From a virus, in the IMG/VR virus record IMGVR_UViG_3300032160_000019, positions 1 through 40,658 of that record: DNA of 40,658 nt. One strand, 5' to 3'. Of this stretch, positions 17,400-40,038 are shown piece after piece. How positions within the stretch are numbered: the first letter of the stretch is position 1; every line of letters begins with the position of its first letter. A program made the translations under genes and the position numbers. A model generated the notes under the pieces. It searched no databases and was not told the origin of the DNA. It worked only from the letters and a program-made list of their open reading frames with translations.

Positions 17400-18368
17400 T
17401 CATGGGAAATGAACCTTCGCCGCGGTATCCCGTAGGACCGCGGGCAGCTCGTGCCGATAGGCGAGCTGGGTTCTGAGGTTCGAGTGCCGGAGGATGCGTT
17501 GCAGGGCGAGCTCGCCGATCCCCCACCCCTCGGCGAGGCTGGCGAAGGTGTGCCTGAAACTCTGGAACGTCAGCCCCGGCACCCCGGCCCGGAGTCCCAG
17601 GGCCTTCACCTGGTCGAGCGATTTCTCCCCGACCGGCCCCTCGAGCCAGGGACCGCGGCGGCGGACCCCGGGGAAGAGCCAGGTAGATCCACACCTGGGG
17701 ATCCAGTCCGCGAGCACCGCGGCCAGGGGCGCCGCGATCGGGATGCGAGCGGCCGAGGCGTGGGTCTTGAGCGACCGCCGGCCGTTGGTCCGGATGTCGA
17801 TCACGCCGTGCTCGAGATCCACGTCGGCCACGGCCAGGCCGAGCAGCTCCTTCCTGCGGGCCCCGGTGAACGCGAAGGCGTAGACGACCGCCCGCAGCCT
17901 GGCAGCTCGCCAGCCGCCCACCCCGCCCGCGTACTCCCGCATACTCCCGCATACTCCCGCGTACAAAGGACGGCTTTGCCCACTCCCCACTCCCCAGATC
18001 CCATCTCCCATCTCCCCATCGGCCAGGGCGAGCACGCGGGCAATCTCCCCGGCCGAGTGCACCGGCGGGTCGAGCTCCTCGACATCCCAGTCGACCCACT
18101 GGCGCGGTGACCGGAAGTCGAACGGGCTGCGCTGCAGATAGCCGGCCCCGATCGCGTAGGTGCAGGCGGCCCGCAACGACCGCAGGTAGGACTCCACCGT
18201 CGCCGGCCGGCGGCCCGGATGGGCGGCGATCCAGGCAGCGACCGACGACGGTGTCAGATCTGCCGGACGACGGCAAAGACCCCCGAACTCGCGCAGGACC
18301 TGCTCCATCTTGCGATAGGTGGCAATCCGCCGCATCGGCGGACGGTACAGGGCCAGGACCTCAGACAT
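17400..18368 (-). CDS. int: Tyrosine recombinase, phage integrase
   Basis: 322 residues from the ATG at 18368, chosen for its GGGGAGA ribosome site; an upstream ATG at 18398 is possible. The N-terminal core-binding domain is at about 1-100. Catalytic landmarks are Arg in FTGARRKELLGL, Lys in RRSLKTHASA, FQSFRHTFASL, His in LRHSNLRTQ, and Tyr in LAYRHE. In the HxxR box the first His is Gln (QSFR). About 30 residues between the N-terminal part and the first catalytic Arg are encoded by simple repeats (GDGIWGVGSGQ through MREYAGGV), an in-frame expansion. It lies beside a tRNA-Arg 3'-half that is the likely attP. It should catalyse integration at tRNA-Arg. Confidence 0.85.
   Translation of the reverse strand: MSEVLALYRPPMRRIATYRKMEQVLREFGGLCRRPADLTPSSVAAWIAAHPGRRPATVESYLRSLRAACTYAIGAGYLQRSPFDFRSPRQWVDWDVEELDPPVHSAGEIARVLALADGEMGDGIWGVGSGQSRPLYAGVCGSMREYAGGVGGWRAARLRAVVYAFAFTGARRKELLGLAVADVDLEHGVIDIRTNGRRSLKTHASAARIPIAAPLAAVLADWIPRCGSTWLFPGVRRRGPWLEGPVGEKSLDQVKALGLRAGVPGLTFQSFRHTFASLAEGWGIGELALQRILRHSNLRTQLAYRHELPAVLRDTAAKVHFP
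17924..18019. repeat. Simple-repeat insertion inside the integrase gene
   Basis: It consists of 3.4 copies of a 10-bp unit (GTACTCCCGC/ATACTCCCGC, 17931-17964), a short spacer, then CACTCCCC pairs and ATCTCCC pairs. The frame is preserved. It falls where tyrosine recombinases normally have a short linker before the first catalytic Arg. Confidence 0.75.
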
Positions 18369-18422
18369 AAACTCTCCCCATGTGTAGCTTTTCGGCATCG
18401 CAAGGTGCTCCAGAAGGGGGGA

Positions 18423-19308: not shown

Positions 19309-19501
19309 CCCCCCCCCCCCATGCGCTATGCGAATTGGCGAACAACGCGCACCTAAAAGGGGGGTTAGCTCGCGTTATTCGCATCGTTGTTCGCAAAACG
19401 CATTAGGACACCTACATGTCATAAGTGCCATTCTCAGAACGGCTTGACCTCGATTTCCGGCGCGTTGTTCGCATAATTCGCATTACTAGCAGGGGGGGGG
19501 G
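19309..19501. repeat. Long inverted repeat with poly-C/poly-G ends at the 3' end of the replication gene
   Basis: The left arm (19309-19350) is twelve C, then ATGCGCTATGCGAATTGG and CGAACAACGCGC. The right arm (19460-19501) is its near reverse complement, GCGCGTTGTTCGCATAATTC, ending in ten G. A third, partial copy of the right-arm motif lies at 19371-19402. The right arm is coding: it specifies the last residues of the DUF3987 protein (PPPASNANYANNAP). Iteron-like repeats next to a replication gene could mark an origin, or the structure could be a terminator or a mobile inverted repeat. Confidence 0.6.
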
Positions 19502-21251
19502 TGTCTACATACCACATGGATGCAGCCGGCCCACCCTTTTCTGGCTTGCGCGACTCTCTCCGGATCAGCCCTGAACGGACCATACGGCGGAGCAAAATAT
19601 TGAGGCCGTCAGCGTCCTTGTGATTGCCGAAGACCTGCCGCTGGATCTTGCTCTGACTGAGTCCCGCATCACTCGCTTGCTCGAGTGCGGCAAGCAGCCG
19701 CTCGGCGTCCGGATCGCCCAGCCGCTCGCCGAAGATGAAGTCGATCGACCGGACTGAATATGCCCATAGCTCGTGGGCTGCCTTGAGATGCACGATCTCG
19801 ATCATCTTGGTCAGGTCGGCCGCGGCATAGATTCCGGCTAGCCGCATGACCTGGGCCGGACCGCGAGCCAGGATGGCACCCAAGAGACCCGGCCGGCGCT
19901 TGCGCAGGACGCCGAGCTGCTCCTCCCAGAACTCCTGGGCCGTCGCCGACCGGCCCATCGGCGTGTCATCCCAGTGGCTAATGCCTTCCAGCGCATCCTT
20001 GAGCTGGTCGATCTTGGCGTCCATCCGGCGCCAGGGGAAAAAGACCTGGCGCTTGATCTCCTTGGATGTCTTGGTGCAGATCCAGATGAAGCGGTTCCCC
20101 AGCCCGTTGGCGATGTCATTCAGGCTGAGGTTGCTGTGGAGGTCGTCATGCGTGACATGGGCATTCACCGAGACGTGGGCCCCTGTCGCGCGGACCGGGT
20201 TCTTCTTGGAAAGGGCCGCAAGGCGGTCGGTCTCCCACGCCTGCCGCAGGACCATGCCCAGCGTCTCACTGTCGCGCTGGAAGATCGCCAGGAGCCGGGT
20301 GAATTCCGACTCGTGCATGAAAAGGCGCTTGTCGGGAACGCCGCGCAGGAACGAACCCGTGCGGGTCGTCTCCTCGTCGGCGACTTGCTCGATCAGGGCG
20401 GGTCCGGAATTGATGCCGAAGGCGATCCGGTTTTCCCAGGTGGGATCGACCTCGGTCAGGATGCGGCGGGGATAGCCCCAGCTCGTCCCCTTGCGGCCGT
20501 CGGCCGTGTTGCCGACCAGGCACAGGAAGATATTCAGGCGGTGCGTGTCGGCCTCATGGAACCAGTGGGGATGACTGCCGACCATGGAGCCGAACCCGAC
20601 CAGGAGCTGGAAGAGGATCGCGGCCGAGCTGGCCTCGGTGTAGGGCTCGATCTCGCGGACGATCTGGCCCATAACCCCGTGAAACGCCGCTTCCCCGGGC
20701 GGTGCGGGGAAGTCGCGAATGCCGTCGCTCTCTTCCGGTTCCTGGCCCTCGCAAAGACTCGACAGACGGTTGATCGTCCGCTCCAGCGCTTCACCCGCGG
20801 TGAAGAGCTGGGAATAGACGGCCCGGTTGTGGTCGTTGCTGATCTGGATCGACTGCCGGGAGATCGACTTTTGACGGACCACCTTGGCGTGATAAATGCA
20901 ATTCGCGGCATGGGGCGCGGCGGTCGTGACCGCACATAAAAAGTCATCTCCGCCCGTGGCCTGGAATTGATCTCGTCGAATCAGCTCTTCCGCCACGCTG
21001 ATCGGGTCGACGGGGTCGCCACGCTCATAGATGGCCGTCATGGAGCGGAAATAAATCTGGTGAACGTCGCGATAAAAGTCATCCGCCGAGACGTGCTGAA
21101 GGACTTCCGGGAATTTCTCGTTGTCGATCAACAATCCGGATAGCAACCAGCGTTCGGCCTCGAGGTTGTGGGGAGGAAGCTCGTGAGCAAGAGCCGCCAC
21201 GGTTGCCTGGCCATTGCCGTTGCCGTTTTCTCTCCCATTTCCCTCGCTCAT
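19434..21251 (-). CDS. DnaB N-terminal domain fused to DUF3987-type ATPase (primase-helicase-like replication protein)
   Basis: 605 residues from the ATG at 21251, in an ATGA overlap with the upstream gene. Residues 26-165 match the DnaB helicase N-terminal domain (PHNLEAERWLLSGLLID, VHQIYFRSMTAIYERGDPVD, TTAAPHAANCIYHAKVV). Residues 185-560 are a DUF3987-type P-loop region with Walker-A-like GNTADGRKGTS (about 247-257), DKRLFMHESEF and a conserved GLGNRFIWICTKTS. The C-terminus has a winged-helix-like part (AGLSQSKIQRQVF, LRRMVRSGLIRRES). It is probably the phage replicative ATPase. It is the central gene of the leftward early operon. The last residues are encoded by an inverted repeat arm. 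Confidence 0.75.
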   Translation of the reverse strand: MSEGNGRENGNGNGQATVAALAHELPPHNLEAERWLLSGLLIDNEKFPEVLQHVSADDFYRDVHQIYFRSMTAIYERGDPVDPISVAEELIRRDQFQATGGDDFLCAVTTAAPHAANCIYHAKVVRQKSISRQSIQISNDHNRAVYSQLFTAGEALERTINRLSSLCEGQEPEESDGIRDFPAPPGEAAFHGVMGQIVREIEPYTEASSAAILFQLLVGFGSMVGSHPHWFHEADTHRLNIFLCLVGNTADGRKGTSWGYPRRILTEVDPTWENRIAFGINSGPALIEQVADEETTRTGSFLRGVPDKRLFMHESEFTRLLAIFQRDSETLGMVLRQAWETDRLAALSKKNPVRATGAHVSVNAHVTHDDLHSNLSLNDIANGLGNRFIWICTKTSKEIKRQVFFPWRRMDAKIDQLKDALEGISHWDDTPMGRSATAQEFWEEQLGVLRKRRPGLLGAILARGPAQVMRLAGIYAAADLTKMIEIVHLKAAHELWAYSVRSIDFIFGERLGDPDAERLLAALEQASDAGLSQSKIQRQVFGNHKDADGLNILLRRMVRSGLIRRESRKPEKGGPAASMWYVDTPPPASNANYANNAPEIEVKPF

Positions 21252-21523
21252 CGGCGGTCCCCCTTCCCTGCGGCGCCGGCCGGCAGCGTCAGCTTCGCCA
21301 GCATGTAGCACGGGTAGTCGTCCCCGGCCTGGTAGCTTCTGATCAGGATGCCCAGCGCAACCATCTCCGTGAACACCTCCCGGTAGAGCGGCCACGGATA
21401 CCAGCCCAGTCGCCCCTCGTATCTCGCGGTGAATACACCCATCCAGCGTGGATGCTGCTGCCATACCGACTCGATCAGCAGCCGGATTCCGCGCCGGCAC
21501 ATGGGACAAGTGCAGGCAGTCAT
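21248..21523 (-). CDS. Small cysteine-containing protein upstream of the replication gene
   Basis: 91 residues. The N-terminus has CTCPMC (ACTCPMCRRGIRLLIESV), and then a winged-helix-like segment (YREVFTEMVALGILIRSYQ). A strong ribosome site (GGAAGGAGG) is present. It overlaps the next gene by ATGA, so it is translationally coupled to the DUF3987 gene and may be its partner or a loader. The zinc site is incomplete unless shared with a partner. Confidence 0.6.
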   Translation of the reverse strand: MTACTCPMCRRGIRLLIESVWQQHPRWMGVFTARYEGRLGWYPWPLYREVFTEMVALGILIRSYQAGDDYPCYMLAKLTLPAGAAGKGDRR

Positions 21524-21927
21524 CACGCACCTCCTTCCGCAAGGGTCCACACGGTCACGTCGCGGCAGGGAAGCTGGGCCCCGATCCCGTAGTGGGTCGG
21601 CGCGGTGGAACTGCACACCCGGCCGGCGGCCTCGAGCATCTCCAGCGCCGACAGCAAATCGCAGGCTGGCGCGTGCGACAGCCCCGGCAAGCGACGCAAG
21701 TCGGCCAGGTCGGCAGGCCGGCGGAGGATGCCCAGCATGTGCAGGCAGAGGTCCGGATAGACCCCGCGGCCGCCCCAGGGCGGGGGATAATCGCGTGGAA
21801 CAGTTGCGAGTTGCGAGTTGCGAGTTGCGAGTGAATCCGGGGGGAGGCCATGTCCCTGGCCGTGTTCGCTTTTCTCGCCACTCGCCACTCGCCACTCGCC
21901 ACTATTGGAGCCACTATTGCTCTTCAT
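21523..21927 (-). CDS. Winged-helix-like protein with heptamer element inserted near its N-terminus
   Basis: 134 residues. The ATG at 21927 still overlaps the upstream stop (ATGA), yet residues about 5-44 are translated from repeat copy 6 (GSNSGEWRVASGEKSE, SLATRNSQLATV). The native part resumes with YPPPWGGRGVYPDLCLHMLG and continues as a small helical/winged-helix domain (GLSHAPACDLLSALEMLEAA, GRVCSS). The insertion sits directly after the start codon region and keeps the frame. Confidence 0.6.
   Translation of the reverse strand: MKSNSGSNSGEWRVASGEKSEHGQGHGLPPDSLATRNSQLATVPRDYPPPWGGRGVYPDLCLHMLGILRRPADLADLRRLPGLSHAPACDLLSALEMLEAAGRVCSSTAPTHYGIGAQLPCRDVTVWTLAEGGA
21801..21919. repeat. Heptamer element, copy 6, inside a gene
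   Basis: Reading on the plus strand: CAGTTGCGAGTTGCGAG with four GTTGCGA units, an unusually long loop that contains GGGGGGAGGCC, then inverted ACTCGCC units ending in ACTATTGGAGCCACTATT. It lies within the frame 21523-21927. Confidence 0.9.
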
Positions 21928-30368: not shown

Positions 30369-30674
30369 ATGGCCCGGCCGATCAGTGTGAAGCCTGATGA
30401 AACGGTCCTGTGGGATTTGGGCTTTCTGGGTTTTTCCGACCAGCACATCGCGAATGTGATCGGCTGCCATCAGAGCCTGATCTCGCGGAGGACGGACTTC
30501 TCGCGGGTGATTGCGCAGGCACGGGCCGAACGATCGGCGGCGATCGTAGCCCTCTGGCGACGCAGCTCCGCCGGAGCCTTGCGATCCGAGGATCGGGATG
30601 ACCGCCTCGCCGAGATCGTGAAAGCGGCCGAGGAACGGAAGATTCGGCGGTCAAAACCTCGTGACAACGACTGA
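30369..30674 (+). CDS. terS: Probable small terminase subunit (helix-turn-helix)
   Basis: 101 residues. An N-terminal helix-turn-helix lies at residues 18-42 (LGFLGFSDQHIANVIGCHQS, LISRRTDF), followed by a long basic helix (RVIAQARAERSAAIVALWRR). It lies just upstream of the large terminase, the expected place for the DNA-recognition subunit that selects the packaging site. A general HTH regulator is the alternative. Confidence 0.6.
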   Translation: MARPISVKPDETVLWDLGFLGFSDQHIANVIGCHQSLISRRTDFSRVIAQARAERSAAIVALWRRSSAGALRSEDRDDRLAEIVKAAEERKIRRSKPRDND

Positions 30675-30942
30675 CAAGCCTGTGGGGGGGGTAGGGGGGG
30701 GAACCCCAAAGCGAAAAAAAGGAAGCCCCCGAGAGAAGGTGGAAAAGCGCCTTCATGCTGCGCTTGATGGGAACCTTCCAGCTCGCGACATTGGGATATT
30801 AGTCCGGGCATATGTAAGTCTGGCTCTGGTTGATGGCGATGACATGATCGATATCGAATCGATAACGCGGGCAATGGCAGAAGAGGATGCGAAAATCGAC
30901 GCGGAGCGAGCGAATCAGGCTTCTGAGAAAGTGCCGGGATGA
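30661..30942 (+). CDS. Small protein between terminase genes (GTG start)
   Basis: 93 residues. GTG 30661 overlaps the small-subunit gene. A Gly/Lys-rich N-terminus (GGVGGGTPKRKKGSPREK) is encoded by G-runs, then a helical part (VEKRLHAALDGNLPARDIGI) and an acidic C-terminus. It overlaps the start of terL by 56 bp. It may be a second small subunit component. Confidence 0.5.
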   Translation: MTTTDKPVGGVGGGTPKRKKGSPREKVEKRLHAALDGNLPARDIGILVRAYVSLALVDGDDMIDIESITRAMAEEDAKIDAERANQASEKVPG

Positions 30943-32362
30943 CCCCGATCGGTTCAACAGGGTATGGATCAACGACGGCAAGAGCTTCTGGAATCGCCAG
31001 AGAGAGATGTGCGATTCGGTCGTCAAGTACCGCAAGACGATCGTGTACTCAGGCAATATGATCGGCAAGGACTTCTGGATCGGAAGGCTAGTCTGGTGGT
31101 GGTTACTTACGAGACGGGATTCGCTGGTTATGGTTACCGGCCCCTCTCAAACGTCTCTCGGCAGTATTACTTGGAAAGAAATCAGGCAAGCGGCCCCCCG
31201 ATGGATGGGGACGGACAGTCGAGCCGTTTCTGCAAAGCTCTCCCAGGGCGTGAAGACAAGCCCGCAACTTGTGGATCTGGGGCCCGGCTGGCAGGCCATG
31301 GGTCTTTCGACAACGACAGTAGAAAGGTTTAGCGGACATCATAATCCCAACCTTCTGGTGATCATCGATGAAGCGTCAGCACTCGAACCTGAGATACGGG
31401 ACTCGATCCAAAGTCTAGGCTACGAGAGGCTGGTCGCGATCGGCAATCCGATCCGGGCAGATGGCCCATTCATCGAGTGGATCCGCCAGGCCGAGGCCGA
31501 TGCCCGCGACAACGTGCCCGCCCACCTGGCCACGAACGCGATCCGGATCCCGAGCACAGACAGCCCGCACGCAGCACTGGAGAAATCACCGTGGGGGATC
31601 GCCGACAAGACCTTCATCGAGAGCAGCTACAGGGACTATGGTGGCGAGCATAGTTTCTGGTGCAATAGCCACATTCATGCCCTGATTCCCACGGTCTCCG
31701 CTCAGCGACTCATTCCCGATTCGTGGCTCGACTATGCGACCTCGATTCAGAGACAGAACCAGCCCCCGAATCACCCCGTGCATCGCACCCGCCGGATCGC
31801 GATTGACCTGTCCGAGGGTGTAGGACGGGACGAAACCTGCATACTCGTAAGGGATTCACATGGCATCCTCGATATTGACGCCCGGAATTCTTTATCTCTA
31901 CCTGATGCAGCGGAAATCACGGCGAGACTCGCAACTCGCTACGGCATCACCTCCAACCGCATCAGCTACGACGGCGCCGGCATCGGACGGGACTTTCCCC
32001 GGTACCTTGCCAAAGTCGGACTCACCGATTGCATCCGTTACGTGGGGGGTGGGGAACCTGCCGAGGCCAGACGGTTCTTCAACTTGCGAACCGAATCGGC
32101 ATGGTGGCTGCACGACAGGCTCAATCCTGACCGGCACACCGACGACAGATATCCTCTCACATCGAGACAGCCCCCGTTCCACATCCCGGCGCGGGCATGG
32201 TGGGCATTGATGCGCCAGGACCTGGCGGCGCTCACCTATGAGTTGGTGGGGGAGCGTCAAGTGAAGCTCATAAAGAAGGAAGACCTGATGCAAGCGTTGG
32301 GTCGCAGCCCTGATCGCGGCGACGCACTCGTTCAGAGTTTTTCATGGGATCGAACGACATGA
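30887..32362 (+). CDS. terL: Terminase large subunit
   Basis: 491 residues. ATPase motifs: Walker A VYSGNMIGKDF (residues 54-63; Asp where Ser/Thr is usual), Walker B LLVIIDEAS (156-164), and the coupling region ERLVAIGNPI. Nuclease motifs: RIAIDLSEG (Asp307), ISYDGAGIGRDF (Asp362) and GDALVQSF near the C-terminus. It packages DNA into proheads and cuts the concatemer. Length is normal for the family. The DNA is somewhat AT-richer than the neighbours. It ends in an ATGA overlap. Confidence 0.9.
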   Translation: MRKSTRSERIRLLRKCRDDPDRFNRVWINDGKSFWNRQREMCDSVVKYRKTIVYSGNMIGKDFWIGRLVWWWLLTRRDSLVMVTGPSQTSLGSITWKEIRQAAPRWMGTDSRAVSAKLSQGVKTSPQLVDLGPGWQAMGLSTTTVERFSGHHNPNLLVIIDEASALEPEIRDSIQSLGYERLVAIGNPIRADGPFIEWIRQAEADARDNVPAHLATNAIRIPSTDSPHAALEKSPWGIADKTFIESSYRDYGGEHSFWCNSHIHALIPTVSAQRLIPDSWLDYATSIQRQNQPPNHPVHRTRRIAIDLSEGVGRDETCILVRDSHGILDIDARNSLSLPDAAEITARLATRYGITSNRISYDGAGIGRDFPRYLAKVGLTDCIRYVGGGEPAEARRFFNLRTESAWWLHDRLNPDRHTDDRYPLTSRQPPFHIPARAWWALMRQDLAALTYELVGERQVKLIKKEDLMQALGRSPDRGDALVQSFSWDRTT

Positions 32363-32571
32363 GTGAGCCTGAAATTATTCGGACACCGCAACAGATCCTT
32401 GCTGAGTTCGCCGATGAAGCGGCCAGCATCCTGTCCGGAGGGAATGCCCGTTCGGACAAGGACTTGTTGTGGGGCGGCGAGGCTAAGACGAAGTTTCCAC
32501 GCCATCAAAGCGCGGTAACGCGCGGCCGTGGCCATTCGGGTTGGGCTTGCACAGATGGGCGATCTTTATGA
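32359..32571 (+). CDS. Small protein between terminase and the Acb2-like gene
   Basis: 70 residues, acidic helical N-terminus (PQQILAEFADEAASILSGGN) and a polar C-terminus (GRGHSGWACTDGRSL). ATGA overlaps at both ends give a tight terL-to-portal operon. Function unknown. Confidence 0.55.
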   Translation: MSEPEIIRTPQQILAEFADEAASILSGGNARSDKDLLWGGEAKTKFPRHQSAVTRGRGHSGWACTDGRSL

Positions 32572-32822
32572 CCAAGACCAAGCGATCTATCCTCGATCGA
32601 GTGAACCGTGACTTCGTCTTCCGTCCCTGCCCGATCGGAGCCGACCCGGACCGGCATGCTGACCGGGAGCACGTGCGTTCGATCCTGGGTTCCGCGGCAC
32701 TCGACCTTGTACGGATCTGCCCCGAGTCGCGCGAAATGAATCACGCGCTGAACCGACTCGATGAGGCCGTGATGTGGTGTCATGCCGCGATCGACCGGCA
32801 CGGAGTTTCGAGCCCGGAGTGA
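32568..32822 (+). CDS. acb2: Acb2/Tad1-like hairpin protein, probable anti-CBASS nucleotide sponge
   Basis: 84 residues. The signature of this phage family is clear: an N-terminal NRDFVFRPCP strand segment, a central helix (REHVRSILGSAALDLVRIC), then CPESREMNHALNRLDEAV followed by MWCHAAIDRHG. Known Acb2 proteins end in the same way (PDSRE.s.ALTkLEeAvMWANAsIAR). Acb2 hexamers bind cyclic oligonucleotides and so blunt CBASS-type immunity. The assignment is by sequence pattern, not experiment. The place between terL and portal, with 4-bp overlaps, implies late-operon expression unless an internal promoter exists. Confidence 0.8.
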   Translation: MTKTKRSILDRVNRDFVFRPCPIGADPDRHADREHVRSILGSAALDLVRICPESREMNHALNRLDEAVMWCHAAIDRHGVSSPE

Positions 32823-33019
32823 TGCGGAGATATCTAACACATCCCGTCGACGGTGACGGCTGGACTGAATGGATAGAACCTGATCAAACACTCTACCGGC
32901 TTCGCTGTTGCGATTGCCGACTAGTGCACGATATCCAATTCCGCATCGATGAAGGCAAGGTCCAGTTCCGGGCACGACGTAATGTTCGTAGGACGGCAGC
33001 TAGCAGGCGAAATCGATGA
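32822..33019 (+). CDS. Conserved small phage protein (CCDC motif)
   Basis: 65 residues of a family common in phages: YRLRCCDCRLVHDIQFR, then KVQFRARRNVRRTAASRR. One CCDC cluster and a His may bind zinc, and the C-terminus is strongly basic. Start by TGATG overlap with acb2. Function of the family is unknown. Confidence 0.65.
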   Translation: MRRYLTHPVDGDGWTEWIEPDQTLYRLRCCDCRLVHDIQFRIDEGKVQFRARRNVRRTAASRRNR

Positions 33020-33231
33020 CCATAATCCGCGGCAAATGGCACGAGATCACGCCCGGCGAACCCCCGGGCGCCTATCCGCACGTCACGGACGGAACTCCGT
33101 GTTGGTGCCGACCCATCGTGCAGGGCTCGGTGATCATCCACCGGCCGTGGGTCGTGTGCGGGGTCGAGGTCTGGGAGACGCTGCTGGCGAGCGATGTATT
33201 CCCCTGCGATTGGAACGCCAACCGGGTGTGA
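33016..33231 (+). CDS. Small protein upstream of portal
   Basis: 71 residues with Trp/Cys-rich sequence (GTPCWCRPIVQGSVIIHR, PWVVCGVEVWETL). Coupled by ATGA to the previous gene. No family recognised. Confidence 0.5.
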   Translation: MTIIRGKWHEITPGEPPGAYPHVTDGTPCWCRPIVQGSVIIHRPWVVCGVEVWETLLASDVFPCDWNANRV

Positions 33232-33379: not shown

Positions 33380-34999
33380 ATGGCCGATACCGACCCACGT
33401 TTATTCCCCGCCCTCCCCAATGTCGGAGGCTCCTTCTCCAGCGATGATCGAGCGTGGATAATCCGGGAGGTCGAGGCCGGCCTGCGCAACCACCGTCCGC
33501 GCCTGGCGAGCGCGATCGAGAACCAAGCGTTCTACGATTTGGAGTCCGACCGCTATCAGCCGCGGCGCGAAGCTGAGACTGAGTTTGATTTCGCCGGCCG
33601 TCCTCGTCGTCAGTCTGGATTTGTTCAGCAGGCCGTGGACCGACTCTGCGAACACACCTACAATCCAGGCCCTCAGAGGACTGTCGTTGGCGATGGCCTT
33701 GCTGATTCTCTGCTTGCCCAGGTCTACGAAACCAACCACATCGACTGTGTGATGCAGCATGCCGAGGCGCAAGCGACCTTGAACGACGTCTGCGCCGTGC
33801 AAATCAAGTGCACGAACGACCCCGACAAGCCCGTCGATCTTCAGCTCTGGGGCGGCGACGAGTTCACGGTCTTCACCGACCCGGAAGACCCCCGGCAGGC
33901 GTTCGCGGTCGTCACGATCGACAGGTACAACCAGCGGACGCGGTACAAGCTGTGGTTCGAGGACGAGGTGCGGACCTACCTCACCGACCAGTACAGCGCG
34001 GACAAGACCGCCGGGGCGCGGGTGGCGATCCAGGCCAGGACCGAGGAGCGAAACACGTATGGGTGCATCCCGTTCGCGTTCCTCCACTACCGGGCCCCGG
34101 TGCGCCAGTTCTGGACTCCAGGTCCGGGGACGTTCCTGCGGAAAGCGGAGCTCCGGATCAATGACCGTCTCAGCGAGCTGGACGAGCTCATCAGCAAGTA
34201 CGGCCGTCCTATCGGGGTCTTTAGAAATGTCAGTCCCACCTTTACTCCGGAGATCGGGCCCGGCCGGTTCATGCGACTCTGTCGCGGCGGGACGGGCTAC
34301 ACCGGGGAAGGCTACGCCGATGGAGGGGAGCCCTCGGCCGAATATCTGCAAGCTCAGCTCGCGATCGAGAGCATCTGGGTCGACCTCGAGAAGTACATGA
34401 AGCAGGTCGCGACGGCGGTCAATTTGCCGTACAGCGCCCTCGAGCTCCAGTACGACGACGCTCCCTCAGGGATCAGCCTGATCATCAAGTCCGCGCCCTT
34501 GCTCACGCGGGCCCGCCAGCGGCGCCCTATCTACCAACTCGCCGAGCTAAGCCTGGCCCGCAAGGTCCTGACCGCGTGCGGTAACCACTACGGCCACGCC
34601 GACCTGCTCGAGCAGGCGAAGCAGCTCCAGCTCCTGCTGGCCTGGGCCGAGCCCCGCATCCCGATCCCGGGCCCCGACCGTGACCAGTCGGACGAGTGGG
34701 AGATGCAGGTGGGGATCAAGAGCCGGATCAACGTGTGTATGGAGCGCTATGGGCTCAACCACGACCAGGCCGTCCAGCGGCTCAAGGAGGTTGCCGAGGA
34801 TGAGGAAACCGCCAAGGCGGTCCTCCCGCAGGAGCTGACCCCACCGGCGAGCGAGACGATGCCCAGCGAAGAGCAGGACGCGCGGAACGCGGAGCGAATG
34901 CAGCAGCAGGCGGATACCACCGAGGGCGCCGAGAGCGGGTACGAGAACAATGATAACAGCGTCACGGGCCCAGCGACGACCACGATGGGGGCGGACTGA
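33380..34999 (+). CDS. Portal protein (SPP1 gp6-like)
   Basis: 539 residues. Central beta/helix features of portals are present (CIPFAFLHYRAPVRQFWTPG, LRKAELRINDRLSELDELIS, IESIWVDLEKYMKQVATAVN). The C-terminus is acidic and Gln-rich. It follows terL closely and precedes the scaffold and capsid genes, the standard head module order. It forms the dodecameric vertex through which DNA enters. TGATG overlap with the next gene. Confidence 0.85.
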   Translation: MADTDPRLFPALPNVGGSFSSDDRAWIIREVEAGLRNHRPRLASAIENQAFYDLESDRYQPRREAETEFDFAGRPRRQSGFVQQAVDRLCEHTYNPGPQRTVVGDGLADSLLAQVYETNHIDCVMQHAEAQATLNDVCAVQIKCTNDPDKPVDLQLWGGDEFTVFTDPEDPRQAFAVVTIDRYNQRTRYKLWFEDEVRTYLTDQYSADKTAGARVAIQARTEERNTYGCIPFAFLHYRAPVRQFWTPGPGTFLRKAELRINDRLSELDELISKYGRPIGVFRNVSPTFTPEIGPGRFMRLCRGGTGYTGEGYADGGEPSAEYLQAQLAIESIWVDLEKYMKQVATAVNLPYSALELQYDDAPSGISLIIKSAPLLTRARQRRPIYQLAELSLARKVLTACGNHYGHADLLEQAKQLQLLLAWAEPRIPIPGPDRDQSDEWEMQVGIKSRINVCMERYGLNHDQAVQRLKEVAEDEETAKAVLPQELTPPASETMPSEEQDARNAERMQQQADTTEGAESGYENNDNSVTGPATTTMGAD

Positions 35000-37186: not shown

Positions 37187-38563
37187 GTGGCCAACAATTT
37201 CGCTGCATTTTTCGAGACCCTGGTGGCCGGGGCCGATGAGTACAACAAGGCCAAGGTCGGGCGAACCGCGCTGCTTGATGCAGTCTACAAGGACGTCAAG
37301 CCCGAGGCCGCCCGCATCGGCAAGACGGTCGACGTCTATTTCCCCGATGTGGGACCGCTCCAGGCGATCAACAACGGCATCCTGACCGGCACCTCGGTCA
37401 ACCCGAATTACATCCCGTTGGTGTTCCAGACCCGGGCGGGTGCCGCGCTGCAGTTCCAGGACTTCGAGCAATGGCAGACCGCGGTCGACCTCGCTCAGAA
37501 GTTCTTCGACCCGCTCTATAAAAGGGCGCGTGAGTATCTCAACGGCCAGATCGCGGCGCTGATCACGCCCGCCAACTTCAACAGCAACGCTCCGATCGTC
37601 GGCGCTACGCAGGGTGAGGTCGTGGTAAACGACCAGCTCAACGCCTGGGGCGTGCTGGCCGACCAGAAGGTGCCGTTGGAAGACCGCGACAAGCTCCGGC
37701 TCATGGTCCACAACCAGGTCTATCGCAAGATGCTGGGCGACTCGGCTTGGGTGCAGGAAAGCTTGGTCAGCGCAGCGATCGCCTTCGAGGCCCGCCAGCA
37801 GGCCGACGTGGGCCATGCCTTCAACTTCCAGGTCGTCTGGGATCAGCAGATGCCGACCAGCTCGGGAAGCATCATCTACGGCCAGGTGACCGCGACTTAC
37901 AACTCGACCACGATTACCGGCCTGAACACGGCTTTCACGCAGCAACTCACTGCGGGTACGTCCTATCTCACGTTTGGCTGCGACGGCCAGGCCGTGAAGA
38001 CCCAGTACAAGGTCACTGCGATCAATTCCGACACCAGTTTGACGCTCGGTGCCGTGATCGGGTCTGGAACCCTGGCCAGCGGGTCGGTCACGACCACAGC
38101 CCGATCCATCACGAACTTGGCCGGCACGGTGAGCAGTTCGACCACGACCTTGACTGGTACAAACACGCTCTTCCTGACCCAACTGCAGGTCGGTCAGTGG
38201 GTGCACGATTCCGCAGTCAGTACTGCTTCGTCAGCCCCGGTCCAGATCGCCACCATCTCGAGCAACACGGCGGCCACGGTTGTCTCGGCGCCCACCACGG
38301 CGTTCAGCGGCTCGACCCTAACCGTCGACAGTTATACCAACCTGGCCCTGCACGAGTACGCCATCGCGCTGGCCCTGCGGCCGATCGCCACGCCGGACGA
38401 AGCCCGCAACGTCGTCGATGTGTCCTACATCGACCTGATGGGCATCCCCCTCCGCGTCATGGTGTCCTATGTCCATATCTACCAGGCCCTCTTCGTTACA
38501 GTCGACTTCGGTTACGCCCTCGGCGTCATCCGTCCCGACTTCGGCGTGATTATCCAGTCGTAG
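37187..38563 (+). CDS. Major capsid protein (P22-coat/HK97-fold type) with inserted beta domains
   Basis: 458 residues from GTG 37187 (AGGAGG 7 bp upstream). The N-terminal (1-225) and C-terminal (385-458) parts match P22-like coat proteins: PEAARIGKTVDVYFPDVG, then LALHEYAIALALRPI and LFVTVDFGYALGVIRP. Residues about 231-382 are an insertion of two beta modules of the fibre/decoration type (VTATYNSTTITGLNTAFTQQ and GTVSSSTTTLTGTNTLFL...). They would project from the capsid surface. The stop TAG (38561-38563) lies at the edge of repeat copy 10. Confidence 0.8.
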   Translation: MANNFAAFFETLVAGADEYNKAKVGRTALLDAVYKDVKPEAARIGKTVDVYFPDVGPLQAINNGILTGTSVNPNYIPLVFQTRAGAALQFQDFEQWQTAVDLAQKFFDPLYKRAREYLNGQIAALITPANFNSNAPIVGATQGEVVVNDQLNAWGVLADQKVPLEDRDKLRLMVHNQVYRKMLGDSAWVQESLVSAAIAFEARQQADVGHAFNFQVVWDQQMPTSSGSIIYGQVTATYNSTTITGLNTAFTQQLTAGTSYLTFGCDGQAVKTQYKVTAINSDTSLTLGAVIGSGTLASGSVTTTARSITNLAGTVSSSTTTLTGTNTLFLTQLQVGQWVHDSAVSTASSAPVQIATISSNTAATVVSAPTTAFSGSTLTVDSYTNLALHEYAIALALRPIATPDEARNVVDVSYIDLMGIPLRVMVSYVHIYQALFVTVDFGYALGVIRPDFGVIIQS

Positions 38564-38704: not shown

Positions 38705-39154
38705 ATGATCGTTTCCGGTACAGTAACAAGCCCTCCCGTTCAGGGCGTGACCGTGCAAGACCCGGCTGACACCAGCCCGCAGACGGGATTCAGCCCGGTT
38801 GGCCTGAATGGAAAGTGGATAGCATGGCCCAGTGACTTTGTCGCCACAGCGGCAAGCGTCACGACGACATCGACGGCCAGCACACCAACCGTGGACTGGT
38901 CGACCGCTGGGGTCTTTCCATTCACCATCACGGCGAACACGGTCTTTTCCTACACCAACGTCCAGATCGGACAGAGCATCACGCTGGTGCTGACTCAATC
39001 CTCGGTGTCGCAAGGAACGGGTACGTTCCCGACGGGGTCGGTCTTCGTCGGCGGTAGCAAGACATTGAGCACGGTAGCGGCTATCGACTCAGTGTCAATT
39101 CTCTGCACGGCGGTTGGCACTTATCTCTGTTCGCTTCTCAAGGCTTATGCTTGA
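38705..39154 (+). CDS. Fibre/decoration-like beta protein
   Basis: 149 residues, beta-rich. The C-terminal part (VDWSTAGVFPFTITANTVFS, QIGQSITLVLTQSSVSQG) is a fibre-type module common in phage tail proteins. A ribosome site GGAGG precedes ATG 38705. It could be a capsid decoration or fibre subunit. TGATG overlap with the glycosyltransferase gene. Confidence 0.6.
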   Translation: MIVSGTVTSPPVQGVTVQDPADTSPQTGFSPVGLNGKWIAWPSDFVATAASVTTTSTASTPTVDWSTAGVFPFTITANTVFSYTNVQIGQSITLVLTQSSVSQGTGTFPTGSVFVGGSKTLSTVAAIDSVSILCTAVGTYLCSLLKAYA

Positions 39155-40038
39155 TGCGACTTTCGATTCTCTTTCCGGTCAAGGACCGGACCAAGTTCTT
39201 GGCCCAGTCAATCGGCTCCGTGCTCGCGTGCCTCCCCGAACTGGAGAGGCACGCGGACTACGAGCTGATTCTGGGCGACAACGCCTCGACCGAGGATGTG
39301 GCCGGCGCTGCGCGCGACGTGTGCCCCTCGATCCGGGTCATCCGCCATGCCGAGGATCTCGGCATATTCGGAAACATGAATGCTTTGATTATGGCCTCTA
39401 CGGGCGACTGGATTCACGTCGTGCATGATGACGATTGGATCTTGCCAGGGTTCTACGCTCGGTTTCTCAAGGCTCTGGAAGAAGTTCCCGAAGCGGGTGT
39501 CGTGTCGATCCTACCACGCATCGTGAATGACGAGACCGGTCAAGAAGCAGCCATGCCGCGGTGGTTTGACCGCACTGGAATCCAGAAGCCAGACGCGATC
39601 CTGGCTCATCTCTACACGGGCACTTCGTTCTCCATAGTCGGGATGCTTGTTGCAAGGCCGGCCTACGACCGCGTGGGTCTCTTCGATCAGTCGATTCCGC
39701 ATTCGGCGGACTGGCAGAAGTGGAAGCAGCTCGCGGCCGCCGTCCCCTGGTTTTACTGCCCGGAATCCCTCTGTCGTTTCCGGTCGCACAAGGAATCGAT
39801 GACGTCGAGGTATCAATCGGCGGGCGACATTCCGAGCGACATCCGCCGGGCCATCGCGATGGATGTGGTGCCAGACCGGCTCCGGGAAATTCACCGCCTG
39901 GCCGTTATGGGCTGGGCATCCTCGATCGCCAATGACGCCAAGATCTATCTGGGTGAAGGAAACATCCCCCTGGCACGAATTTGCTTGACGGAAGCTTTCA
40001 ACATCCTTGCCCTGGTCGATTGTGACGCCCCCGGGTAG
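39154..40038 (+). CDS. Family 2 glycosyltransferase
   Basis: 294 residues from ATG 39154 (TTG 39151 is possible). GT-A features: LSILFPVKDRTKFLAQSIGS at the N-terminus, YELILGDNASTEDVAGAARD, and the metal-binding DxD in IHVVHDDDWILPGFY (residues about 87-101). The rest fits acceptor-binding parts (ESLCRFRSHKESMTSR). It is coupled to the fibre-like gene before it by 1 bp, so a virion protein may be its target. It is a different protein from the transferase at 6518. Confidence 0.8.
   Translation: MRLSILFPVKDRTKFLAQSIGSVLACLPELERHADYELILGDNASTEDVAGAARDVCPSIRVIRHAEDLGIFGNMNALIMASTGDWIHVVHDDDWILPGFYARFLKALEEVPEAGVVSILPRIVNDETGQEAAMPRWFDRTGIQKPDAILAHLYTGTSFSIVGMLVARPAYDRVGLFDQSIPHSADWQKWKQLAAAVPWFYCPESLCRFRSHKESMTSRYQSAGDIPSDIRRAIAMDVVPDRLREIHRLAVMGWASSIANDAKIYLGEGNIPLARICLTEAFNILALVDCDAPG

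What the first reader, a model, noticed from the sequence alone, without database searches (positions are those of the whole stretch)
32568..32822. Acb2/Tad1-like anti-CBASS gene in the terminase-portal operon
Strong family pattern (SRE...AL.RLDEAVMW..AAI.R). It implies that the host lineage uses cyclic-oligonucleotide immunity and that the phage counters it. Placement within the packaging genes is unusual for an anti-defence gene.
Basis: partly seen in the sequence, partly recalled or inferred. Interest (0 to 1): 0.75.

Follow-up and report, generated by a model that had tools for sequence, protein, structure and literature searches.

The report
Divergent Acb2-type phage sponge gene
A small gene in an uncultured phage encodes a divergent relative of known Acb2 proteins, which soak up bacterial immune signals; it is an optional extra carried in a variable slot between the DNA-packaging genes.

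Summary
The 84-aa ORF at 32568-32822 (+) is real. It belongs to the Acb2/Tad1 hairpin superfamily. Alone it scores 26.8 bits against PF24729 (cut-off 27), but 45 of 46 relatives match that family (best 2.5e-25). The family profile finds the solved "Acb2 homolog 43" (six chains; 7.6e-10) and Tad1 (about 5e-4). AlphaFold2 gives a short N-helix plus a long hairpin (pLDDT 92.5).

Against solved Acb2, the two main cyclic-dinucleotide pocket positions are kept conservatively (Tyr to Phe18, Lys to Arg37). Two others differ (Thr to Asn62, Phe82 to Asp76), as do near-invariant family positions (His to Arg19, Asn to His72). Sequestration of cyclic oligonucleotides is therefore likely but untested; ligand specificity is open.

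The packaging-gene setting is real but not unusual. Related genes sit beside terminase or portal genes in several named phages. In the window's own lineage the TerL-portal interval is a variable slot: acb2 is present in 10 and absent from 10 of 20 loci. Three acb2-bearing loci also carry DNA methyltransferases.

The inference about the host's immunity could not be tested, because the host is unknown.

Verdict: a new member of a known kind, at a cargo site that may hold counter-defence genes.

The parts
32568..32822 (+). acb2-like gene, 84 aa, Acb2/Tad1 hairpin superfamily
   Evidence: PF24729 E=6e-6; phrog_1454 E=3e-11; family alignment A3; orthologues 64-82% and 41-45% identical at the same site; dN/dS 0.11-0.32
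32619..32621 (+). codon of Phe18, at the position of T4 Acb2 Tyr8 / PaMx33-type Tyr11 (cyclic-dinucleotide pocket)
   Evidence: profile alignment; Tyr in 84%, Phe in 9% of the family
32676..32678 (+). codon of Arg37, at the position of T4 Lys23 / PaMx33-type Lys26; invariant basic residue in A3
32727..32735 (+). codons of Ser54-Arg55-Glu56, the SRE start of the second hairpin helix shared with Tad1
32751..32753 (+). codon of Asn62, at the position of T4 Acb2 Thr68 (Thr in 86% of the family)
32793..32795 (+). codon of Asp76, at the position of T4 Acb2 Phe82 (Ala in 95% of the family)
   Evidence: position by extension of the alignment
30369..30674 (+). small DNA-binding protein, possible small terminase subunit (weak)
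   Evidence: phrog_664 E=0.001, phrog_6831 E=0.003; orthologous and upstream of TerL in relatives
30887..32362 (+). terminase large subunit
   Evidence: phrog_2 E=1.9e-20
32344..32571 (+). small ORF, unknown, whose stop overlaps the acb2-like start (ATGA)
   Evidence: orthologue in L121 and L126
32822..33019 (+). small ORF, unknown, ATG overlapping the acb2-like stop (TGATG)
   Evidence: orthologue in L002
33016..33231 (+). small conserved ORF of unknown function (CWC.P...G.VI.HRPW motif)
33380..34999 (+). putative portal protein (by position and size; no profile support)
   Evidence: 90-94% conserved in L121 and L002; no family match

Best explanation
The gene encodes a divergent Acb2-type sponge. 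Its product most likely folds as a short N-terminal helix and a long helical hairpin, assembles as a hexamer like solved Acb2, and binds cyclic oligonucleotides made by a host CBASS-like (or other nucleotide-signalling) defence without cutting them, so that the host's killer effector is not switched on. It is an accessory gene in a variable slot between TerL and the putative portal gene, translationally coupled to its neighbours and so probably made with the packaging genes. Shown: the gene, the family, a confident monomer model, purifying selection, presence/absence at the site. Inferred: hexamer, ligand binding, sequestration, late timing, target system.
For: PF24729 and phrog_1454 matches; 45 of 46 family members match PF24729; the family profile finds PDB 9ptq 'Acb2 homolog 43' (six chains) at 7.6e-10 and Tad1 at about 5e-4. 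Phe18 and Arg37 fall on Tyr8/Tyr11 and Lys23/Lys26; Y8A of T4 Acb2 disrupts cyclic-dinucleotide binding (PMC12657218, PMC12657230). AF2 pLDDT 92.5 with the helix order described for Acb2 (PMC10419184). Foldseek's top PDB match for a typical family member is the T4 Acb2-cGAMP complex, probability 0.98. Accessory behaviour: acb2 in 10 and absent from 10 of 20 TerL-portal intervals. Neighbouring cargo includes a C5 methyltransferase (PF00145 3.7e-42) and D12 adenine methyltransferases (PF02086).
Against: The window protein alone is 0.2 bits under the Pfam cut-off. Its own model found no Acb2 or Tad1 chain among the top 50 PDB matches. Four conserved or pocket positions are changed: Arg19, Asn62, His72, Asp76. 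A sister group at the same site (L122, L123, L144) lacks the aromatic and the basic pocket residue altogether. No member of this clade is known to have been assayed, and the host is unknown.
Confidence: 0.7

Rival explanations
1. A sponge of the same fold whose ligand has shifted: it mainly binds cyclic trinucleotides or another signal (for example an ADP-ribose signal of Thoeris) through the hairpin, and the dinucleotide pocket is degenerate.
For: The changed residues Asn62, Asp65, His72 and Asp76 are spaced so as to lie on one face of the last helix, and two of them sit at T4 positions tied to nucleotide binding (T68, F82; PMC12657230, PMC12657218). The sister group loses the aromatic and basic pocket residues but keeps SRE, Asn62, Glu66, Trp70 and Arg77. 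The part shared with Tad1 is this hairpin.
Against: Phe18 and Arg37 are conservative replacements; an aromatic at 18 and Arg37 are kept throughout the window's own group. No structure with ligand was found for this clade; which residues line the trinucleotide site was not established here.
Confidence: 0.35
2. A protein of the Acb2 fold that no longer binds immune signals and serves packaging or capsid assembly.
For: It is encoded between TerL and the putative portal in all lineage members that have it, and relatives lie near terminase somewhat more often than random placement (8 of 18 against 4.4).
Against: Half of the loci of the lineage lack it at this site and still have TerL and portal, so it is probably dispensable for packaging. 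Relatives in other phages lie beside DNA polymerase, ribonucleotide reductase, RNase H, holin or lysin genes.
Confidence: 0.12
3. A chance ORF or a chance motif match.
For: The single-sequence Pfam score is borderline.
Against: Orthologues at the same site, dN/dS 0.11-0.32, profile score 99.9 bits (that profile includes the window sequence), phrog_1454 E=3e-11.
Confidence: 0.01

Closest known systems
phrog_1454 / PF24729-containing small phage proteins (F.YHPPK..QP.RY..IR...SREKSLA.TKLEEAVMWANAAIAR type), including Gordonia phage Schomber gp23 and Paenibacillus phage Tripp gp59
   Same: Length, helix plan, F16, R37, P52, R55-E56, A60, E66, W70, I75, R77; some members also beside portal or terminase
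   Different: 24-42% identity outside the window's lineage; window has R19 for H, N62 for T, H72 for N, D76 for A, and a 4-residue insertion before the hairpin
Acb2 homolog 43 (PDB 9ptq, six chains)
   Same: Aligned over most of its length with the family profile, E=7.6e-10; SRE-like GRE motif, hairpin
   Different: Remote in sequence; publication and ligand data not found in the library
T4 Acb2 (Vs.4, PDB 7uq2) and Pseudomonas phage Acb2 (p26, PDB 8h2j)
   Same: Helix order; aromatic and basic pocket positions; A-x-T/N-x-L-x-E-A-x-x-W segment in T4
   Different: Very remote (T4 profile hit E=0.45 in the PDB); no SRE motif; T4 has Thr68 and Phe82 where the window has Asn62 and Asp76
Tad1 (PDB 7uav, 8kbe and others)
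   Same: C-terminal hairpin SRE..AL...EA.MW
   Different: Tad1 has an N-terminal beta-sheet (PMC12043709), absent from this 84-aa all-helical protein

Membership tests
Acb2/Tad1 hairpin superfamily (PF24729) | Profile match at the curated cut-off | tested here: inconclusive
   26.8 against 27 bits alone, 27 with frame neighbours; orthologues L126, L122, L144 exceed it, L001, L002 and L128 do not
Acb2/Tad1 hairpin superfamily (PF24729) | Homology through a coherent family | tested here: met
   A3: R37 invariant, 12 near-invariant columns; 45 of 46 members match PF24729
Acb2 | Short N-terminal helix plus two long antiparallel helices, no beta-sheet | tested here: met
   AF2 helices 3-15, 27-50, 55-78, pLDDT 92.5
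Acb2 | Structural similarity to solved Acb2 | tested here: inconclusive
   No Acb2 in top 50 for the window model; T4 Acb2 top match, prob 0.98 but E=0.62, for a typical family member
Acb2 | Aromatic (Tyr8/Tyr11) and basic (Lys23/Lys26) residues of the cyclic-dinucleotide pocket | tested here: met
   Phe18 and Arg37, both conservative replacements
Acb2 | Thr68 and Phe82 of T4 Acb2 | tested here: not met
   Asn62 and Asp76; Phe82 is also not kept in PaMx33-type Acb2 or in the wider family (Ala 95%), so it is not a defining feature of Acb2 as a whole
Acb2 | Homohexamer binding cyclic di- and trinucleotides and blocking CBASS | not testable with these tools
   No multimer prediction or assay available
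Tad1 | N-terminal beta-sheet domain before the hairpin | tested here: not met
   84 aa, all-helical model

The most novel reading that the evidence does not exclude
This clade of Acb2-type sponges has shifted its ligand away from the classic dinucleotide pocket, and sits in a phage slot between TerL and portal where counter-defence genes (sponges, DNA methyltransferases) are exchanged.
Probability: 0.35. Interest if true: 0.55.

Novelty: new member of a known kind. Interest (0 to 1): 0.36.

Why it matters
It extends Acb2-type sponges to an uncultured phage lineage with no close named relative. It also points to a specific genomic slot (TerL-portal) that gains and loses such genes, which could be searched for further counter-defence genes. 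The natural series of pocket changes at one site (aromatic Tyr or Phe, or lost; basic Arg, or Gln) is a ready-made set for testing how ligand choice evolves.

Tried and rejected
L003 from the first relative search is a chance match on the antisense of a capsid-like gene and was dropped. Megablast against named phages gave nothing; the best listed TerL relatives are about 26% identical, so no host could be inferred; no tRNA in the window. The protein search of genome assemblies found no close prophage copy (best 56% over a short segment). The Foldseek search with the window model was uninformative. A simple MAFFT alignment with T4 misplaced the hairpin, and a profile alignment was used instead. 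The idea that the placement is unusual was rejected. The literature library holds few of the primary Acb2 papers; that Lys26 (and Tyr11) of the PaMx33-type protein were tested by mutation is from my own knowledge.

Full report
What is there. The window is a 40,658-base virus record. The ORF at 32568-32822 (+) encodes 84 aa. Its ATG overlaps the stop of the ORF before it (ATGA), and its stop overlaps the ATG of the next (TGATG), so it is probably translationally coupled within the run TerL (30887-32362), 32344-32571, acb2-like, 32822-33019, 33016-33231, putative portal (33380-34999). TerL is supported (phrog_2, 1.9e-20), and a head protein follows at 37187 (phrog_283, 3.6e-17). The portal name has no profile support.

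Family. The single sequence scores 26.8 bits against PF24729 Acb2_Tad1_hairpin (cut-off 27) and 44.3 bits against phrog_1454. A search with a small alignment found 309 relatives in viral contigs, of which the best 80 were fetched, and 24 in genome assemblies. In an alignment of 46 (A3) Arg37 is invariant, and F16, A44, P52, R55, E56, A60, E66, W70, N72, A73, I75 and R77 are near-invariant as columns, although the window itself has His at 72. 45 of 46 members match PF24729. The A3 profile finds PDB 9ptq 'Acb2 homolog 43' (7.6e-10), several Tad1 structures (about 3e-4 to 4e-3) and, weakly, T4 Vs.4 (0.45). T4 Vs.4 and the Gordonia and Paenibacillus phage proteins match PF24729 strongly.

Structure. 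[quoted passage not shown] Foldseek with this model lists no Acb2 or Tad1 among its top 50. As a control, a typical family member (L046) was modelled (pLDDT 90.0); its top two PDB matches are chains of the T4 Acb2-cGAMP complex (probability 0.98 and 0.94, though E is about 0.6). The structural evidence therefore supports the family and is inconclusive for the window protein itself.

Pocket. Profile alignment places T4 Tyr8 on Phe18, T4 Lys23 on Arg37 and T4 Thr68 on Asn62; by extension along the same ungapped segments, PaMx33-type Tyr11 and Lys26 fall on Phe18 and Arg37, and T4 Phe82 on Asp76. The N-terminal parts of these alignments score near zero on their own and rest on equal spacing. Y8A and F82C disable T4 Acb2 (PMC12657218), and T68M is reported to lower binding (PMC12657230). 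So aromatic and basic pocket positions are kept conservatively while Thr68 and Phe82 are not. Phe82 is not a general feature: the PaMx33-type Acb2 has Ala there, as does 95% of the family. Window-specific departures from the family include R19, N62, D65, H72 and D76; the last four share one helix face by their spacing. Three sister loci (L122, L123, L144) have lost both the aromatic and the basic residue yet keep the SRE...N..DEA..W...AI.R core. This makes altered ligand choice plausible; it is not shown.

Setting. L121 (same contig as L001 and L010) and L002 keep the order TerL, acb2-like, portal. Taking the putative portal as a marker, 32 loci of the same lineage were found. In 20 loci, window included, where the TerL-portal interval can be read, acb2 is present in 10 and absent from 10, checked with a sensitive profile; L125 and L143 have identical portals, so about nine absences are independent. 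Most intervals without acb2 are 173-422 bases (two are 1215 and 1790); with it they are 595-2038. A portal tree needs at least 5 changes, but it is poorly resolved, so repeated exchange is suggested, not proven. The same intervals hold a C5 cytosine methyltransferase (L123, PF00145 3.7e-42) and D12 adenine methyltransferases (L124, L144; a possible remnant in L130). Methyltransferases can protect phage DNA against restriction (established knowledge), so the slot looks like a place for counter-defence cargo; that reading is inference.

Wider placement. In named phages relatives lie directly after portal (Gordonia phages Schomber and ScarletRaider), just before the terminase genes (Mycobacterium phage RonRayGun; about 1.2 kb before in Lebo14), after holin or lysin B, or among replication genes. 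Of 18 viral contigs outside this lineage with a detectable TerL, 8 have the gene within 6 kb on the same strand, against 4.4 expected by random placement with strand ignored. Placement among packaging genes is thus recurrent.

Evolution. Against six orthologues dN/dS is 0.11-0.32, against 0.06-0.13 for the portal: a real protein gene under purifying selection, evolving faster than its neighbour.

Limits. Function, oligomer and ligand are inferred. The host is unknown, so the inference about host immunity stands untested. Tad1 relatives also bind Thoeris signals (PMC12043709), so CBASS is the likeliest but not the only target.

Noticed in passing
L123:3534-4409, L124:4826-5995, L144:4506-5657, L130:5745-6008: DNA methyltransferases (C5 and D12 type, one a possible remnant) in the TerL-portal interval of relatives of this phage.
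   Followed up: partly
Paenibacillus and Brevibacillus phage records (H17, H51 and others): Acb2-type family members are annotated as 'phosphomannomutase' in GenBank, which looks like a spreading misannotation.
   Followed up: no
window 32822-33019 and 33016-33231: Two small conserved ORFs of unknown function next to the acb2-like gene, recurring in relatives; a third type (L121:5385-5612, L124:4462-4689, L144:4202-4426) follows acb2 in other loci.
   Followed up: partly
window 37187-38563: The head protein also matches a tail-fibre family over residues 231-293 (phrog_1980, 6.4e-7), suggesting an inserted domain.
   Followed up: no
window 39151-40038: ORF whose sequence looks like a glycosyltransferase (by eye), located among the virion genes.
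   Followed up: no
window 17400-18398 (-) and 19434-21542 (-): Phage integrase (PF00589) and DnaB-like helicase (PF00772): the phage is probably temperate.
   Followed up: no
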